Source: Capitulum mitella
Taxonomy: Eukaryota > Arthropoda > Thecostraca > Pollicipedomorpha > Pollicipedidae
NCBI GenBank assembly: GCA_030062745.1
Contig: CP099841.1
Coordinates: 29,019,398 to 29,083,397 of the forward strand
Reading direction: 5' to 3'
Length of the DNA stretch: 64,000 nt
The notes beneath the pieces are model-generated. The model was not told where the DNA came from. It saw only the letters and a list, made by a program, of their open reading frames with translations, and did no database searches. How positions within the stretch are numbered: the stretch's first letter is position 1; the number at the start of each line of letters is the position of its first letter. The translations under genes were made by a program, and so were the position numbers. Below are positions 31,865-46,693 of this stretch, one piece after another.

Positions 31865-33491
31865 ATGGATACATGGATTAAATTAAATGGCAGCACAGCA
31901 GGGAAGGATAAACTGCTGAGGTATGTGTCACAATTCTTATGCATTTGTCATTTAAATGAGACTGTCACTGCATGGGTATGTGGTATTTGTGGCCATTTTG
32001 AGGTTTGTGTATGTTTTGAAAGAACCAAATAGATATTTGATTGTGTGGTTATGTTGCAGAACTTAAAAACATTTTCTCATAATTTTTTAGGCCATTCATG
32101 TTCTATATTCTTATTGTACACTTGTAATGCTTGAATAACACTGTGACATGATGACAAACATGATACAATGTGGTTGTTTGAATTGTTTTCACAGGGTTCT
32201 CCAGTATGCTCTTAAAATTGTGAATCACTATCTGAATTCAAGACATGGAAGCAGCACCTCAGTGGTCAAATGGGAAAGAATTGGAGAGCACCATCAGCTC
32301 TTTCAGAAAATGTAAGGATGCTGAATTCATTTCTGAACTAATATAGAAGTTAATTGTTCTGCTCAAATAATGTCAGTTACAAGTTTTGGAATGCTGAAAT
32401 AAATATGACTTCTGGTTGCTGTACCAATTACAATGGATTAAGCATGGTACAGTACCTATTCTAATTAAATAGTTTTGCAGGGACTTATCATCATTGTCAC
32501 CAGCCATGCTCTGAAGCTGCTTCATTTCGGCTACATTTCAAACTAAAGAAGACCTCACATGCCATTCTGTTTGCTGGGCCGTGATGCTCCCCTGACGTCA
32601 CCATCCTGCCACAGTGCTGCGCATGGGCAAGAGCGCCGAGGTGCTGCGCGGCACGTCGCGCACGCTGCGCCTTTCAGATCCCGTGTACCGGGTGACGCTG
32701 ACGGTGGCTCGCATCACCCAGGCGCTCTTCCTGCTGGCCGACCACGTGATCTGGCTCTCCCGCGCCCGCCTGGTGCGCGTCGACGTCGGCAAGTGGGAGC
32801 AGATCTACTACCGCTGCTGGCTGTTCAGGTGAGCCGCCGGCCGCGCGGCCGCCGAACGCGGCGTCTGCGGTGCGGTGAAGGTGATGATTTGGCACATTTT
32901 TAGGAGCTTGTTTTAAGCATTTCAGTCTACTGTATGCATTAATAAATATTTGGGGAATCTGGATTTGACACTTTTTGAGATGAATCCGACGGGCCTGAAA
33001 CGCAGTTTGGTTCCTTTACTTTATTTTTATATGTTTGCCATACATTTATAGCCTTATATGGATGGTTACGCCGTGACTTTTCTGTGACCGTATATGCATT
33101 CTAACAAAATCACAGTAGCGGCGATGTTTTGGAAAACAGGTTCATGCTGTTCAAAAAGAGTACCCTTTGCCGTTGCAGCGTGACGATGAACCTGTGCCGA
33201 GACGCGTACGACCTGTGGCGGGCGGCCGAGGGGTACGCCGAACACGGGCTGCCGGCGGCGCGGGGCCGGCTCGTGCCCGAGCTGCGCAGCCTGCCGCTGG
33301 CCGTGCTGCTCGACCGGCACCGCGACCTGGCCGTCGACACGGCCAAGAACGTGTGCGACCTGGCGCTGCCGCTGGCGGCGCTCGGCCACCTGCCGCTGCC
33401 GCCGGCCGCCGTCGGCCTGTGCGGCGTGGCCTCCAGCGCGCTGGCGCTCTGGGCCGTGCTCGACCCGAGCCTGGTGCTGCGGCCCAGCTGA
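31865..33491 (+). CDS. PEX11B: Peroxisomal membrane protein PEX11 (PEX11B-like)
   Basis: Coding exons 31865-31920, 32195-32311, 32615-32828 and 33179-33491 encode about 232 residues (human PEX11B is 259). The start MDTWIKLNGSTAGKDKL matches the family opening MDAWVRF...RERL. Further marks are LQYALKIVNHYL, LLRMGKSAEVLR, VARITQALFLLADHVIWL, VTMNLCRDAYDLW and the C-terminal LCGVASSALALWAVLDP membrane segment. PEX11 elongates and divides peroxisomes by curving the membrane and recruiting fission factors. The exon 2-3 junction is off by one base: the A4 run at 32307-32310 appears to have one A too many. With three As the join reads QKLLRMGKS, like human RKLLRLGNS. Exons 1-2 are AT-rich and CpG-poor, exons 3-4 GC-rich. 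Confidence 0.92.
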
Positions 33492-33524
33492 GCGGCACGG
33501 CTCCGGCGGCTCAGACCGTCTGAC

Positions 33525-33895
33525 GCGGAACTGTCTGACGGCTGAGCCGTCTGACGCGGAGCTGTCTGACGGCGGAGCTGTCTGACGGCGGAGCTGTCTG
33601 ACGGCGGAGCTGTCTGACGGCGGAGCTGTCTGACGCGGAGCTGTCTGACGGCGGAACTGTCTGATGGCTGAGCTGTCTGACGGCGGAACTGTCTGATGCT
33701 GAGCCGTCTGACGGCGGAACTGTCTGACGGCGGAACTGTCTGATGGCTGAGCTGTCTGACGGCGGAGCTGTCTGACGGCGGAGCTGTCTGACGGCGGAAC
33801 TGTCTGATGGCTGAGCCGTCTGACGGCTGAGCCGTCTGACGGCGGAACTGTCTGATGGCTGAGCTGTCTGACGGCTGAGCCGTCTGACGGCTGAG
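33525..33895. repeat. 16-17-bp minisatellite in the PEX11 3' region
   Basis: About 22 copies of GCTGTCTGACGGCGGA and close variants, starting about 30 bases after the PEX11 stop codon. The core CCGTCTGACGG is nearly palindromic. The long minus-strand open frame across the array is a by-product of the repeat, not a gene. Confidence 0.95.
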
Positions 33896-35614
33896 CTGGG
33901 CGACTGAGCTGCTGAAGGATTGAACTGTCGAATGGGTGAACAGAGTTTCGGGGGCTGCGCGCCGGCTGGGTGAATCGTTTTGTAGCGATGTCTAGCAGGG
34001 TGCGGTGAAAACGCCTGATTATAACGGGATTCTCGCCGGGTGAGTACAAACAGTAGACTGGGGAATGCCTCCTCATTACAACATTGTACAATGTTAGACT
34101 AGCTCGGAGATTAGCAGGAGAGCTATATATGCGGCCAGTGTAGAGCAGTTATCTCACACAATTCCAGTTTCACTCCCGCATTGATGATCATGTAAATGCA
34201 ACTCACCTCAGACAGCGCTATGTCGGCGGTTGCTCCATATTATTCTCTTTTGTTGGAGGATTGCGATTCAAGTTCGCTCGGGTTGCAGGCATTAAAGTGC
34301 TGTGTGACGACAGATTTCCCGAAGCTCAAGTTTTGTTATCGTGTGGTGTGGCAAAGTCTGCATGTTGCACCATGGGTAGCCTTGTGGTCCGTGTATATTG
34401 GTGGGGTTTTCTTGGCTTTAGCGATAGTTGTCTATGTATGTTTTAGCGGAGGAGACTTCTGGTAATCCGTTGCCGGCTGTGACGGTGATGATACGTGTGT
34501 AAATGGCATTCATTCGGCACGTCAGGTATGTTTTAATGGCGTGATCGAAGCTTTGAATAAATATGGTTCAGCGAGATGTTCTGAAATGCAAAACAAAGAT
34601 GGAAAGCGATCAGATTTGATCTAAAATCCTGAAGGAGTAGGAGAATGTTCTTGGTGGTTGTTTGCCTGTATGCCGCATAGCGCGGGTTGCGGCTCTTAGA
34701 AGAGCCAGGGAGTTAGCAGACGTTTAGCCCATGATGCTGAGATCGTAGAGGAATGGGAAATGAAGTAGACTGAACCGACTGAATACTGCGAAAAAGTGTT
34801 CAGTTTCGGCAGAACTAGCTTCTCTGAGCAGTTAACGAAACGAGTTTGGAAGTGGCCGGGTAAACTTGAACAGTTCACACATCTCCATTTTCGACAGATT
34901 TCCTCACACGTGCGCCCTCTGAAATGTCCAACGAAATGTTGACGGCTGGAAAGCGTGCATGTATCAGCCATTGTCGTGCCACATTATTGCCCTTTGCAGC
35001 CGTGTGCCACCGTAAAATCTTTTGATCCATCACAAAGTGAGAGGAAATGACAAACTGCTTCACTGACGCGGTATGTGGATGCCCGACTCAGAACATCAGT
35101 ATGACAGAGTACAGTGCCCATCCTCGGGATGGCGTTGTTGTCTTCGAGGAGGCGTGTAGTGGACGGACAGAGACCGTCATGGTGTCGTGTGATGACGCTA
35201 TGGCAGGTGCCTGAGCTCAAATGGTACCGGAGCCAAGGTCCTGAGAGTCTTCTGCCGTGGTGAATAGGCTTCGGTGACGAATGGTACACATTTTTGCTGC
35301 AAAGGCCAAGCCAGCTTTTCACGCCGAATCAAAATACGTAAAAAATGGCTGTTTTAGATGGTTTTCTGAAGTACTTCACGCACAGAAACCTTCTCCATGA
35401 AATGACTTTGGGGATACTCCTCATCTGGGACACCCTTTACTACGAGACGTTTGGCTGGCAGTGAATGCAGGCGCGTGCCGCCGCACTGCTACACACCAGT
35501 CGAACCATACCGTTACTGTCGGCGCTGGTCAATCCCGTCCAACGCCGTCACTGTCCGTCGCCTAAACTCCGGCGTCCGAACGCTGTTCCAGAGCGAAGAC
35601 ACGTGACTGCCCTT
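33896..35614. other. Space between the convergent PEX11 and AXDND1 genes
   Basis: The left part is the likely PEX11 3' untranslated region, up to the AATAAA at 34556. The rest, up to the AXDND1 stop codon at 35615, is the expected 3' region of that gene. I see no coding exon and no repeat. Confidence 0.5.
34556..34561 (+). terminator. Candidate polyadenylation signal of PEX11
   Basis: AATAAA on the coding strand about 1.06 kb after the stop codon. If used, the minisatellite at 33525-33895 is part of the mature mRNA. Confidence 0.5.
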
Positions 35615-41220: not shown

Positions 41221-41262
41221 TCAGCCGAGCAGCTGGCTCCAGCGGGAGCTGCGGCCGGAGCC
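41172..41262. repeat. 45-bp duplication spanning the Vps62-family stop codon
   Basis: CTGGTCAGCC starts at 41172 and 41217, and the following CAGCNGCTGGCTCCAGCG is shared, giving a period of 45 bp. The right copy encodes the protein end SRWSQLLG and its stop codon; the left copy lies in the 3' untranslated region. Confidence 0.75.
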
Positions 41263-44200
41263 GGCCGCCGCCGGGCACTGGAAGGCGGGCGGCTTGAGCG
41301 GAATGCCGGTCGGACCGCCGCTGATGGTGCACAGCGAGCCCAGCAGGTGGTAGCAGTCGGCCGGGTTGCCCCAGCGGCCCAGGAAGCGGAGCCACTGCGG
41401 CGGCCGCACGTGCAGCGGCACCAGCCGCCGCCACGTCAGCCAGGGCTGCCCGGCGCCGGTGACGTCCGTCAGGCGGGGCCAGCGGCTGTACACCTGGACC
41501 CCTGTAAGATGGAACAGAGGTCTGTCAGACGGAGCGGAGGCGTGTCAGATGGAGCGGAGATCTGTCAGACGGAGCAGAGGTCTGTAGGACGGAGCAGAGG
41601 TCTGTCAGACGGAGCAGAGGTCTGCCAGACGAAGCACAGGTCAGTCAGACGAAGCAGGGGCCTGTCAGATGGAGCAGAGGTCTGTAGACAAGGCAGAGGT
41701 ATGTCAGATAGGGCAGAGGTTTGCCAGGCGGAGCAGAGATTTGTCAAGCAGGGCAGGAGTATGTCAGATGAGGCATTAGTTTTTCATGTAGAACAGATGA
41801 CTGTCACACGGAGCATTGGTCTGTCAGACGGGACAAATATCCGCCAGGCAGGGCAAATGTCTATCAAACGGGGAAAACATCTTGCAGACGGAGCACGAGC
41901 GTGGCAGGCGGGGAACATCTGTTGGACAAGCTACCATCACGGTTGGGTCAACTACACCTGAATTCCCCTGACACAGCACAAGTATATGCAGCTATATGTT
42001 TTGCCATGTGGTAATGCGCCTGGTTGCGCAAGTGATACGGGCTAAAGCCTTGGCAAGATGCAGTTACGTTTGTGGTTGTTGCTTCACACAGCCTTCAACT
42101 GAGCTTTGCGCTTTATGCAATCTCTGTCATTTTGCCACAACTCCATCCTCCAAATTTCGTTGTAATCGAGTTTTCTTCATGTTTTACGGAGCAAGATTGG
42201 AAACCTAGACGCCTAGATGCTTTTTCCCGGGTAATAACCTGCTGCAGCACCTGAACGCTCACCTGGGTTTGGCCAGACGCCGTGGGAACCTTTTGCGACG
42301 TAAAGAACGGGGTGGTTACCAAACGTCTGGAGCTGAAACATAATTCGTACAGATGTTTTTTTTACACATCGACAAAGAAGGATTGGAAAGGAACCTGGGT
42401 CGCGCACTTAACTGTAAGTAACAGGCTCGGAACTCTGTTGACTTAATGGCGGATGCAGTGGATAATAGTGTGGACCGCACGGCCAGTCACGTGCTTCCTA
42501 GTAAATAGATGGGCATGGACATTGGGGAGACACGAAGCCGTCGCTGAAGCATGAAAATGCGCTGGTGTAATACTGTGAATAAACAGACAATCCTGCAATC
42601 ATTTCGCATGGCACATTGGTAACCAACGGCAACATGTTGCACAGACCAATAAGTTGTGTCAACAGCACTGAAAGTTGTTTTGGCTTGAATTGTATGAATG
42701 AGCGGTGCACATTTGGAAATAAGAGAGGCATGCAGAAAGACACGAATTCTGGTTTGCCAATGAAAACTTTTCTACCTCCGCGTTGTTCGCATGCTTGCCA
42801 TTCGCGTTGTTTGCTAAACTTACTGTCGGCGCATATTTCGGGCTCAGTATGAACTGTCCCCTGTTGTTCTGGGAGGCAAAGCGATACACGCTGGTGGACG
42901 GCTCGTAGTTGTAATAGGCTCCGAATTCGTGGGCAGATATGTAGATGGAAACAGGTGCGCCATCCTGCGTACAGAAGACATACAGGGCACTGCTGGTAAG
43001 TCGAATACTGAATCGCAGCCCAGTTTTCAATGTGAATCGTAACATACAGTGATAAGTTAATGCTCCACATCGTGAACAATGAAGTTAACAGCACCATCAC
43101 AATAATTTGCAAGCATTTGCAGGGGATGAAACGAAATGGAGGCCCTAAAAATTGTTAATGGGCCCAGCGATTTTTTTCTCCGGCGTGAGCACCTGGACAA
43201 GATGCCATTACGACCAGCGAATTTTCCAGACGTTAAAAGCCTGGAGCTTGGTACTAACCGTCCCGGTAGTGGCTGTCCTGTGTACATAGAGCCTGAGACC
43301 GACTGTTCTGCGCATCTGGTCCCTGAGGCCGTCTGTCGTGCATGACTGAAACTTGAGACCGACTGTGCTGCTTACCTGGACCCTGAGACCGACTGTCACG
43401 CGTACCTGGACCTTGAGACCGACTGTTCTGCTCAACTGGACCAGGGACTGATTGTCCATGCGTATCTGGACCCTGAGACCGACCGTGACGCGTACCTGGA
43501 CCCTGAGACCGACCGTGACGCGTACCTGGATCTGAGACCGACCGTAAAGCGTACCTGGACCCTGAGACCGACCGTAAAACGTACCTGAACCCTGAGACCG
43601 ACCGTGACGCGTACCTGGACCTTGACACTGACGTGCTCCCAGTCGCCGACGTGACTGCCGCGCAGCCGGCCGGCCGCCCGTTTCCCTTCGCTGAACGGGT
43701 AGAACATCCAGTAGGTGGCGACGAAGCTGGGCAGCCGGGTTCGAGACCGGCCCCGGCCCTGGACCGCCGGCGACTCGCACCGGCTCACCGAGACGTACAC
43801 GGGCACGCTGCCAGAGGCTGGACTCGTGCCGCGCAGGTGTTTCGGAGGCTGTACGTTCCCGGTGCCGAGACCTGGAAGAGGTGGGCAGGATAGCGGAGGA
43901 GGCCGTGAGTTTGGGATTGCGTTTTTATTGTGACGTTGGCTCATGTTCTTCTCGAGCGACGCTTTCCATTGTTGGCGGAAACGGCTGTGCGTTTTTCCCA
44001 ATATTTTGCTCTAATGTTCAACAGATTGCGGACTAGGAGCGTCTGCATGGTGATCACACAATATTTTTTAGTTCAACCTTTTCTATGGTGTTTAATGACG
44101 CCAAAAGCAGTTTCCAAAAACTTACGGTGATTTGAGAAACAAGCTGGAACTGTGGGCAAAATGAACTGTTTTACGCTACTCAATCTGACTCAATCTTACG

Positions 44201-46693
44201 AATGGACGTCATGCATGATGTAGGTGACCTACGCATTTAGGTCTCTACTTGAGTTAGGTCATTTCAGGTGGAAATCAGGAAATGAAGCTGCTGACCCATT
44301 TGTCCTTTTTAATCTCGTGGAGGAGGGTCATGAATTAATTTGAAATGATTACGTGCGTACGTGCATGCATACATTCAGACAGCATTTGCAATCCATCTTC
44401 ATCGTCAGAAGCCGTTTTGGGGTCCTCAGAGGTGTCTTATTGGTTACATCTCCTGCGATCTAATGGAAACCAGAATCCTCTGACATTTTTTGAGGTCATC
44501 TTGAGGGTCACCGTTTTACTTGAAAAGGCCCAGCTTGGTATCCTTGTGTCTAAAGTACCAGTTACACGTTCGTTTTTGTTTCGTCGACGTATCACGTCAG
44601 GTTTGGAAATGGCTGGGGGTCGTGTCAATCCCCTGTACCGTGGAACGTTGCCAAATGGCGATCACCACCGAGAGTTAAAAGGCAGATGGACAATATTATG
44701 TACTGCCTGTGGGCAAGGCAGGACTGTACCACCTCGTGAGGGCTTTGGAGCCAGACTCAGTACCTCGGGGCAGGCGCGAGACGAGGTGAGAGTCCAGACT
44801 GCGACTGCCCACCGGCAGGCTGTAGTTGACCACCTCCCGCAGGCCATCCGTGTCCAGCACCTTGACGTGCGAGATGAAGTCGTCCACGTCACCGGGAAAC
44901 CAGCTCTCCTCCGGGTGGAGGAACAGCAGCGGGGCGTACCGGACCAGCAGGCTCTCCAGCAGGTCCGCCTCGTCTGCCGGCGACGGAGGGACCGTGCAGC
45001 GGGCCGGGCATGTTGAAAGCTCGTCATGACCCGTGGTTTCGGTCGTGTTGCGGAACAAAGGCCGTTTCAGGCGGCGCGCGCGGACGGAGTCGAGGGCGGG
45101 GTTCCGCCGAGGACGGGACGATGGGGGTAATGTCTCTCTCGTTTGGGAAATGCAACATTGTTTTTGCTGCGTGGTGAGTGAGTGAATGAAGAGAGAGGGG
45201 GGGGGGGACAAAATGTAGGGCCTCAGTACTCAATACCTCAGGACTGAGGAGCTCAGTACCTCAGCTACCGGTTTACCCGTGGAGCCAAGGACTCTGCGCT
45301 ATGCTGACCCGTGATGGAGCACATGCCAAAGGTGCCATGGCACCGTGAAATGCTTCGATGGAACGCAACAAACGGCTTTGGTGTGATGCAAACGACGGCT
45401 AACTAGGGGCTGGTTTCATCTGGAATCTGCAGGAGCCGGCTTCTGTTGCAGCGTCCTTTGGACTGCTGCGAAGCGGGTGTGCAATGTTTAATCACTAAGC
45501 AGAACAATGATAAAAAATAGCAGGAGCGGAACAGCTTTATTACCACGTTCTGCGACCCTAAACGCGCCTGGCCTGACGGTTGTCGCCTTCACGCCATCGT
45601 TAGACCGCGGAACATTACAACATCCTGCTGAACAAAGACTCATCCTTTCACCTGGGATGAGAGCGGACTGGGAAATTATTGCAGCTCCCTGTTCAGCGAT
45701 TTGAAGGCAATCGCAGATTTTGCCGGAACTCGGATTAATTGTTCTCTCGTCGAAGTTGTCGGGAAGTGTTGCTAATCTTTAGCGACGTCTGAACTTTGGA
45801 CTTTGAACTCTGAGTCCGACAGGCCTCTCACCCGGCGGGGTTGGGAAATGCTCGCTAATGCATTCCGCGTGCGTATCGGCGACTGTGAGATGCACGACGA
45901 GGTCTGGCCAAGCGTACCAGAGCGTGGAACGACGCGCAGCAGTAATCACGTCACGGAAGAAGGCAAAAAGTGGAACCAGGGGCGTAGTTAAAGGGATGGC
46001 CAAGGGGCCATGACGCCGCTTTGGGGTCGAAAACGTAACGTTTCTTGACACAGCAAAAATGAAAGTAAATAACAATTTTCGGAATTCAGGAGTAAAGTGG
46101 CCGAAAGCCGAGAAGTAGTCGTTTTTGAGGGGTGGCTAGGTTTGTTCTGGTCCCATCCTTGCCGAATTCTTGGCTATGCCCACGGGTGGAACGCATCATT
46201 TCAGGGGGCTCCGCCGTCCGTGCAGGGGACTGAACGGCAGTACGGAGACGTTCACCACGGCGGTGCCATGGGCTGTGCTGGATGTGGTATCTTCAGTGGG
46301 AGGAGTTACATCACATTGGCGAGGAGCTCAAATTACACCAGTTCTAGTAACCGTGCACCTCAGTGTGGGGAGCCGAACTACATCATCATAAGTAGCCGCA
46401 CTAGTGAGGGGAGCGTCATTGCGTTATTTCAGGGTGCTTCATTATGCGTGTCATTACCGGCAGTTACGTCATACCTGCGCGGGAAACATCAGTACGTCAT
46501 TGCGGGGAGCGGAGTCACACCAGTGCGGGCAGCCAGACCCCGGCCAGGGTGCACGGCACTAATTACCAAACGGCCGTTGGGCCGCGTCGGCCGGCGACGG
46601 CATCAGCAGCAGCAGCGTCAGCAGCAGGGCTGGCAGCGACAGCGGCGGCGGCGGCGCCGAGCTGGGCCGCGGCCAGCGGTGACGCAACGCCAT
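41221..46693 (-). CDS. Vps62-family protein with signal peptide, six exons
   Basis: Exons 46567-46693, 44764-44973, 43615-43871, 42824-42964, 42263-42332 and 41221-41501 join in phase to give 361 residues. Residues 1 to about 36 are a signal peptide with a long leucine core (LPALLLTLLLLMPSPADA). The family marks follow in order: RYAPLLFLHPEESWFPGDVD at about 53-72, a TYWMFYPF strand, GDWEHVSVKVQ at about 188-198, APVSIYISAHEFG, NHPVLYVAKGSHGVWPNPG, then RRLVPLHVRPPQWLRFLGRW and GGPTGIP. This is the Vps62 (former DUF946) layout known from fungi and plants. Yeast VPS62 was found in screens for vacuolar protein sorting, but the biochemical role is unknown. The signal peptide implies a lumenal or secreted product. 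The ATG at 46693 is chosen because the signal core follows it; an in-frame ATG at 46837 gives an Arg-rich extension. The exon 1-2 join is the least certain. Confidence 0.82.
41511..41930. repeat. 20-bp minisatellite abutting the last 3' splice site of the Vps62-family gene
   Basis: About 21 copies of GGAGCAGAGGTCTGTCAGAC. Copies next to the exon (41511-41640) are almost identical and those farther away are progressively diverged. On the transcribed strand each unit reads GTCTGACAGACCTCTGCTCC, that is, a branch-point-like CTGAC, an AG and a pyrimidine stretch. The array ends nine bases from the true acceptor at 41502. Confidence 0.95.
43255..43614. repeat. 30-bp minisatellite repeating a 5' splice site
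   Basis: Twelve or so 30-bp units, one of them 29 bp. On the transcribed strand a unit begins with GTACGCGTCACGGTCGGTCT and ends CAGGGTCCAG, so each junction reads TCCAG|GTACGC. The first junction is the exon 43615-43871 boundary itself. About eight junctions keep a usable MAG|GTRNG donor. Units are mostly in frame with the upstream exon. Confidence 0.95.
44974..46566. other. First intron of the Vps62-family gene
   Basis: A 1.6-kb intron with no recognised exon. It contains a G10 run near 45198-45207 and a degenerate repeat at about 46285-46535 with spaced copies of GGGGAGCG, TACATCA and TACGTCAT words. CpG content is ordinary. Confidence 0.5.

What the first reader, a model, noticed from the sequence alone, without database searches (positions are those of the whole stretch)
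43255..43871. A minisatellite whose unit is the exon's own 5' splice site
The exon 43615-43871 ends GGTCCAG|GTACGC on the transcribed strand. The next 360 bases are about twelve 30-bp units that each end TCCAG and begin GTACGC or a variant, so the true donor is followed by about seven more donor-quality sites at 30-bp spacing. Most units are in frame, and use of a downstream donor would add 10 residues per unit. It may buffer splicing, create length isoforms, or be the relic of intron birth by tandem duplication of an AG|GT-containing segment, a model already proposed in the literature. I do not know of this exact arrangement being described.
Basis: partly seen in the sequence, partly recalled or inferred. 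Interest (0 to 1): 0.75.

Follow-up and report, generated by a model that had tools for sequence, protein, structure and literature searches.

The report
Splice-site minisatellite (mirage) in an arthropod
The boundary between an exon and its intron has been copied about a dozen times into the intron of an arthropod gene, a kind of repeat known from a few lancelet genes, and in a sample of other genes of this genome about one splice junction in twenty lies inside a tandem repeat, at least four of them built the same way.

Summary
Confirmed and extended. The array lies in intron 3 of a complete six-exon Vps62-like gene. A paralogue places the donor at 43615 without a gap. The unit is the junction itself: the last 21-24 exon bases plus about 8 intron bases. 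Six downstream copies score at least as high as the genuine donor, but only 43585 and 43555 keep the frame. The same gene has an array of 3' splice sites ending exactly at the exon-6 acceptor. In WD40-anchored loci elsewhere, 8 of 148 predicted junctions lie inside an array; four clearly carry exon letters in the unit. Random intron points give 8.7, so junctions are neither hot nor protected. The kind is known: lancelet 'mirages'. New here: an arthropod host, donor and acceptor arrays in one gene, a prevalence estimate, and decay away from the exon. Intron birth is contradicted, since the paralogue has the intron. Splicing was not observed.

The parts
46567..46693 (-). exon 1 (ATG, hydrophobic N-terminus that looks like a signal peptide)
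   Evidence: gene model; start chosen by eye, no homologue checked
44764..44973 (-). exon 2
   Evidence: tblastn match to the paralogue
43615..43871 (-). exon 3, ending CAG|GTACGC
   Evidence: 43615 pairs with the paralogue's donor (L037 5107) in an ungapped stretch
43615..43638 (-). exon part of the junction unit (last 24 bases of exon 3)
   Evidence: 20 of 24 aligned columns identical with the intron-only array, alignment reaches the exon end
43286..43614 (-). donor mirage: 11 units (10 x 30, 1 x 29 bases) directly after the donor
   Evidence: similarity falls away from the exon (rho -0.71, p 0.010, 12 steps)
43585..43585 (-). alternative exon end, CAG|GTACGT, in frame (+10 aa), scores above the genuine donor
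43555..43555 (-). alternative exon end, CAG|GTACGC, in frame (+20 aa)
43376..43376 (-). strongest donor copy, CAG|GTAAGC; its use gives a premature stop
42824..42964 (-). exon 4
42263..42332 (-). exon 5
41502..41921 (-). acceptor array: about 21 units of 20 bases ending exactly at the exon-6 acceptor; 8 of the 10 units nearest the exon, the genuine one included, end in CAG
   Evidence: TRF 41502-41746, units read; similarity falls away from the exon (rho -0.72, p 0.0002, 22 steps)
41221..41501 (-). exon 6 with stop codon

Best explanation
The array is a 'mirage': a minisatellite seeded by tandem duplication of an exon-intron junction inside an already existing intron. A segment holding the last 21-24 bases of exon 3 and the first ~8 bases of intron 3 was duplicated, and further copies accumulated on the intron side only. 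They are tolerated because the exon still ends at an intact donor and the spliceosome, most likely by pairing sites across the exon (exon definition), takes the copy nearest the exon. Copies far from the exon are older or less homogenised and decay. The 3' splice site of exon 6 was repeated in the same way on its intron side, and in the sampled genes about one junction in twenty lies inside an array. Shown: the junction letters are the unit, the gene is intact, the intron is older than the array, similarity falls away from the exon. Inferred: the direction of growth, exon definition, near-exclusive use of the outermost site. The array most likely has no function of its own; what it changes is intron length.
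For: Gene and donor: full-length model of 361 aa, Vps62 PF06101 E 4e-10, 39.1 bits against a cut-off of 22.1; paralogue 124 of 245 aligned residues identical in exons 3-6, no gap at the three shared junctions. Junction is the unit: exon end against intron-only array 15, best of 73 other exon ends 11; against the unit consensus the genuine end scores 13, the paralogue's exon end 7, the four other exon ends of the gene 3-6. Intron-side growth: the array overhangs the exon by less than one unit in 8 of 8 cases (2-60 bases) against 74-654 bases on the intron side, and array coverage is 0 of 4440 positions at 60-90 bases on the exon side. Polarity: rho -0.71 (p 0.010), -0.72 (p 0.0002), -0.79 (p 0.004) in three of four arrays; the fourth, LIS1-like, -0.34, not significant. 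Same in other genes: one search finds the own exon end matched by 0 of 75 other ends in an SNRNP40-like gene, 0 of 76 in a PHIP/BRWD-like one, 0 of 79 in a LIS1-like one and 1 of 76 in a WDSUB1-like one.
Against: No RNA data: splicing is not observed for any of these junctions. In this gene two downstream donors outscore the genuine one, and intron-proximal sites can win when all are occupied (recalled), so mixed use is possible. Junction-including arrays are not more frequent than arrays at random intron-side points (8 against 8.7 +- 2.2), so no junction-specific process is shown. The exon-6 acceptor array shares no exon letters with its unit (score 8; 36 of 75 other exon starts do as well), so it repeats an intron end, not a boundary in the strict sense. 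In the same test L053 (51 of 79) and L083 (22 of 77) fail and L073 (5 of 77) and L078 (5 of 78) are weak. Downstream donors as good as the genuine one are not general: 0 in the L088 and L083 arrays, and 4 in L073 against 1.4 in shuffles, at most 5. The exon-only test against every window 30-mer is moderate: 59 of 127,040 reach 13, in overlapping clusters, the best 15.
Confidence: 0.82

Rival explanations
1. The tandem donors are used: a variable share of transcripts ends exon 3 at 43585 or 43555, inserting VRVTVGLRVQ-type decapeptides, as a length-isoform generator or as a buffer against donor mutations.
For: 43585 scores above the genuine donor and both keep the frame (371 and 381 aa); six copies equal or exceed the genuine site. 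In C. elegans a minisatellite is over-represented near alternative splicing regions (PMC4039745, abstract).
Against: Four of six extra donors give premature stops; unit lengths show no leaning to multiples of three (4 of 10); in the exon-6 array each of the ten upstream unit positions tested, seven of them ending in AG, gives a premature stop.
Confidence: 0.12
2. The array is the relic of the birth of intron 3 by tandem duplication of an AG|GT-containing exon segment.
For: The unit holds CAG|GT; such births are proposed or described elsewhere (titles and abstract openings; a model drawn for lancelet globins).
Against: The paralogue, about half identical in protein, has the intron at the same position and phase, and TRF finds no array in that intron; the intron is therefore older than an array of nearly identical units.
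Confidence: 0.03
3. An ordinary intron minisatellite drifted up to the donor and the likeness to the exon end is chance or later gene conversion into the exon.
For: Arrays cover about 4 percent of this genome's sampled DNA and junctions are not enriched.
Against: The likeness is in register and reaches the exon edge; three other genes show it at 22 of 24, 30 of 30 and 26 of 29 aligned columns; the exon end still codes EHVSVKVQ|DG against EHLSISVK|DG in the paralogue.
Confidence: 0.05

Closest known systems
Mirages of lancelet genes (Adh3, globins BflGb6 and BflGb9, troponin C, PGBD5)
   Same: Minisatellite-like tandem duplications that span an exon-intron boundary; both 5' and 3' boundaries occur; many units carry splice signals; units of 10-72 or 150-160 bp (PMC3087553 passages; PMC3902484 passage).
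   Different: The host here is an arthropod; two arrays in one gene, one at a donor and one at an acceptor; decay away from the exon measured; a sampled prevalence. Undisturbed splicing and length or somatic instability, reported in lancelets, were not tested here.
Variable internal tandem repeats at exon-intron boundaries in human segmental duplications (PMC2812944, passages)
   Same: Minisatellites of about 30-bp units located at exon-intron boundaries that alter intron structure; 27 intron modifications are reported.
   Different: There the repeat can make a new intron and is often also retained in the exon; here, by prediction, the exon keeps its end and the copies stay intronic.
Intron gain by tandem duplication of AGGT-containing segments (search listing only)
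   Same: Tandem duplication of a segment with a donor-like AG|GT.
   Different: Here the intron existed first.

Membership tests
mirage (tandem duplication of an exon-intron boundary) | repeat unit spans the boundary, exon letters included | tested here: met
   Vps62 donor array, 20 of 24 columns to the exon end; also L044, L080, L088, and L048 with 1 of 76 others as good. Not met for the exon-6 acceptor array, L053 and L083.
mirage (tandem duplication of an exon-intron boundary) | units carry splice signals | tested here: met
   6 downstream donors at or above the genuine score; 8 of the 10 units nearest exon 6 end in CAG
mirage (tandem duplication of an exon-intron boundary) | both 5' and 3' boundaries are affected in one genome | tested here: met
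   5 donor and 3 acceptor junctions among the 8; with clear exon letters 3 donors (L048, L080, L088) and 1 acceptor (L044)
mirage (tandem duplication of an exon-intron boundary) | regular splicing not disturbed | not testable with these tools
   no RNA data are held
mirage (tandem duplication of an exon-intron boundary) | length instability between alleles or in soma | not testable with these tools
   one assembly only
intron gained by AGGT tandem duplication | intron absent from the paralogous or ancestral copy | tested here: not met
   paralogue has the intron at the same place and phase
functional tandem alternative donors | alternative sites keep the reading frame | tested here: not met
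   2 of 6 keep it
Vps62 (PF06101) | match over the curated cut-off | tested here: met
   39.1 bits against 22.1 for the 361-aa model; two exons alone stay under it, 20.8

The most novel reading that the evidence does not exclude
Exon-intron junctions are as open to minisatellite growth as the rest of the intron, and in this arthropod about one junction in twenty lies inside such an array, which by extrapolation would mean thousands in the genome. Exon definition makes the copies invisible, so that introns lengthen from their edges by tandem duplication of their own splice sites. The genome would then hold a large natural set of identical competing splice sites (the SNRNP40-like gene has eight downstream copies identical to its donor).
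Probability: 0.5. Interest if true: 0.72.

Novelty: new member of a known kind. Interest (0 to 1): 0.55.

Why it matters
In the passages I saw, boundary-spanning minisatellites are described from single lancelet genes and from recent human duplications. Here they recur across genes of an arthropod at both kinds of junction. They give a ready test of how the spliceosome chooses among identical sites at short spacing (nearest to the exon, nearest to the other splice site, or strongest) and a simple route by which introns grow. They also matter for annotation: gene finders can be misled by repeated exon ends.

Tried and rejected
Donor at 43621 (AAG|GTCCAG): considered first because paralogue and window share 'SVK', then rejected, since the ungapped alignment pairs 43615 with the paralogue's donor and +3 C is rare in donors (recalled).

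Enrichment of arrays at junctions: tested and not found (8 against 8.7 +- 2.2; 0.72 of 2000 draws reach 8). The exon finder is crude (codon bias from the window plus recalled splice weights), so some of the 148 junctions will be false and dilute the count. It gave 147 junctions, 7 of them inside an array. I then moved three by hand (L048, L078, L080) and added one acceptor (L039), all next to arrays, which gave 8 of 148; only junctions near arrays were re-examined, which leans the count upwards. Input: 79 of the 150 WD40 hits scored, 3 of which had no locus, on 51 of 54 fetched loci (L047, L057, L063 overlap others and were left out).

Arrays 13-71 bases away from a junction (L058, L056, L084, L066) show no exon likeness. 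The SRP72-like locus L005 (array next to an acceptor) was left out of the junction counts because it came from a search with the unit itself. The paralogue's own 33-bp array (L037 7118-7571) is not at a junction.

A second, independent family (kinesin, PF00225) could not be searched: the server did not complete. The organism was not identified: 16 contigs, 477 Mb and a 45.5 Mb contig C1 resemble Capitulum mitella (463 Mb, 16 chromosomes, longest 45.43 Mb; passages; another assembly has 512 Mb), but nothing tests this. Literature searches on boundary minisatellites listed no crustacean case that I recognised from titles and abstract openings; two listed papers that might bear on it (PMC7536079, PMC12783039) were not opened. 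PMC117041, cited as the Adh mirage paper, is not held.

Full report
What is there. On the minus strand the window holds a complete six-exon gene, exons 46693-46567, 44973-44764, 43871-43615, 42964-42824, 42332-42263 and 41501-41221, reading 361 aa from ATG to stop. It matches Pfam Vps62 (PF06101) with E 4e-10, over the cut-off. A paralogue lies on contig C2. Exons 2-6 match it; in exons 3-6, 124 of 245 aligned residues are identical, with no gap at any of the three junctions. The paralogue's exon ends at L037 5107, which pairs with 43615 in an ungapped stretch.

The array. After CAG|GTACGC come 11 units, ten of 30 bases and one (the third) of 29; TRF itself starts the array 18 bases inside the exon. 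Six downstream copies score at least as high as the genuine donor, against 0.26 (at most 3) in 500 shuffles; the strongest are CAG|GTAAGC at 43376 and CAG|GTACGT at 43585 (recalled donor weights; U1 duplex energies rank them alike). Because of the 29-base unit only 43585 and 43555 keep the frame (371 and 381 aa); 43526 and 43496 give a stop further down, 43406 and 43376 a stop inside the array.

The unit is the junction. The last 30 exon letters alone score 13 against the unit consensus; 59 of 127,040 window 30-mers outside the array reach that (best 15, in overlapping clusters), 4 of 5000 shuffles do, the paralogue's exon end scores 7 and the four other exon ends of this gene 3-6. Against the intron-only array the exon end scores 15, with 20 of 24 columns and the alignment reaching the exon edge; 0 of 73 other exon ends do as well. 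The exon end codes EHVSVKVQ|DG where the paralogue has EHLSISVK|DG, so the exon copy is read as the original and the intron copies as derived (inference).

A mirror case in the same gene. A 20-base array, 41502 to about 41921, ends exactly at the exon-6 acceptor, whose place is again fixed by the paralogue. Of the ten units nearest the exon, eight end in CAG, the genuine one included. At 7 of 11 unit ends tested a branch-point-like motif (recalled set) lies 21-25 bases upstream. Each of the ten upstream unit positions tested, seven of them ending in AG, gives a premature stop if used. The unit shares no letters with exon 6 beyond chance, so it repeats the intron end only.

Elsewhere in the genome. 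I fetched loci anchored by WD40 matches (30, 24 more), used 51 of the 54, and predicted exon edges around 76 matches (79 of the 150 scored ones were copied, 3 had no locus): 147 junctions, 7 inside an array. After moving three by hand and adding one acceptor, 148 junctions (75 acceptors, 73 donors), 8 inside an array (5 donors, 3 acceptors). A ninth array, L039, stops a few bases short of its acceptor; the exon start there scores 12 against the array, reached by 1 of 78 others. The clearest of the eight: an SNRNP40-like gene (L080), 71 bases x 10.1 at 98 percent, each unit about 60 exon bases plus the donor; its spliced peptide matches human-type U5-40K chains over equal spans, 94 and 94 residues, though WD-repeat chains with many repeats rank above it. 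A PHIP/BRWD-like gene (L088), 36 exon bases inside the array, 26 of 29 columns identical. A LIS1-like gene (L044), 22 of 24 columns. A WDSUB1-like gene (L048), 23-base units, 13 of 13 exon letters, matched by 1 of 76 other ends. Weaker: L078 (FBXW-like; equal spans of 102 residues with FBXW7) 5 of 78, L073 5 of 77. Without exon likeness: L083 22 of 77, L053 51 of 79. Downstream donors equal to the genuine one number 8 in L080 and 3 in L048; L088 and L083 have none, and the 4 of L073 are within the shuffled range.

How often, and is it special? Arrays of period 8 or more cover 4.4 percent of the first 30 WD40 loci and 4.2 percent of the window. At random points 50-700 bases to the intron side of the same junctions, 8.7 +- 2.2 of 148 would lie in an array; 8 do. 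Junctions are thus neither enriched nor protected. What is special is the asymmetry: in 8 of 8 the array overhangs the exon by less than one unit (2-60 bases) and runs 74-654 bases into the intron; at 60-90 bases on the exon side coverage is 0 of 4440 positions. I read this as duplications falling at random, of which those whose extra copies are spliced out survive.

Polarity. Similarity to a junction-near unit falls with distance from the exon in three of four arrays tested (rho -0.71, -0.72, -0.79; LIS1-like -0.34, not significant). In the two Vps62 arrays the template was typical of exon-near units, which leans towards this result; in the other two it was the junction unit itself.

Mechanism. 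Most likely the junction was duplicated in an existing intron, copies piled up on the intron side, and splicing keeps to the outermost site because sites are paired across a short exon. The last step is inferred; proximity or strength rules (recalled) would predict otherwise for this gene. Isoforms from 43585 and 43555 remain possible.

Known or new. Lancelet 'mirages' are tandem repeats spanning exon-intron boundaries in Adh3, globin, TnC and PGBD5 genes; the passages say that splicing does not seem disturbed and propose intron gain from them (PMC3087553, passages; PMC3902484, passages). Human segmental duplications hold variable repeats at exon-intron boundaries (PMC2812944, passages). The held text of the Daphnia tandem-repeat survey (PMC3152781) has no occurrence of 'splice'. 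The host here is an arthropod: 150 of 150 scored Chitin_bind_4 matches, of 627 candidates, are over the cut-off (that this family marks arthropods is recalled). It may be a thoracican barnacle, which was not tested. I file the donor array as a mirage, a new member of a known kind, in another branch of animals.

Noticed in passing
L005:1-460: SRP72-like gene (name recalled): a roughly 34-base array runs up to the acceptor near 420, and the exon start GGAGACG resembles the unit. Found with the Vps62 unit as query, so left out of the junction counts.
   Followed up: partly
L037:7118-7571: The Vps62 paralogue has its own 33-base x 13.8 array, in the intron before the exon that matches exon 3 and away from any junction.
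   Followed up: partly
window 33518-33898: 16-base x 24 array GTCTGACGGCGGAGCT, near a doubtful tRNA-Leu (gag) call at 33328-33417 that itself overlaps a 30-base repeat.
   Followed up: no
L037:1682-2534: TCTGTC repeated about 142 times downstream of the paralogue.
   Followed up: no
genome contigs C9, C10, C11, C13: Large clusters of Chitin_bind_4 cuticle-protein genes, several with identical scores.
   Followed up: no
L053 minus strand 1355-1467: Two-copy 57-base duplication, 94 percent alike, that includes the acceptor and 2 exon bases: possibly a mirage at its first step.
   Followed up: partly
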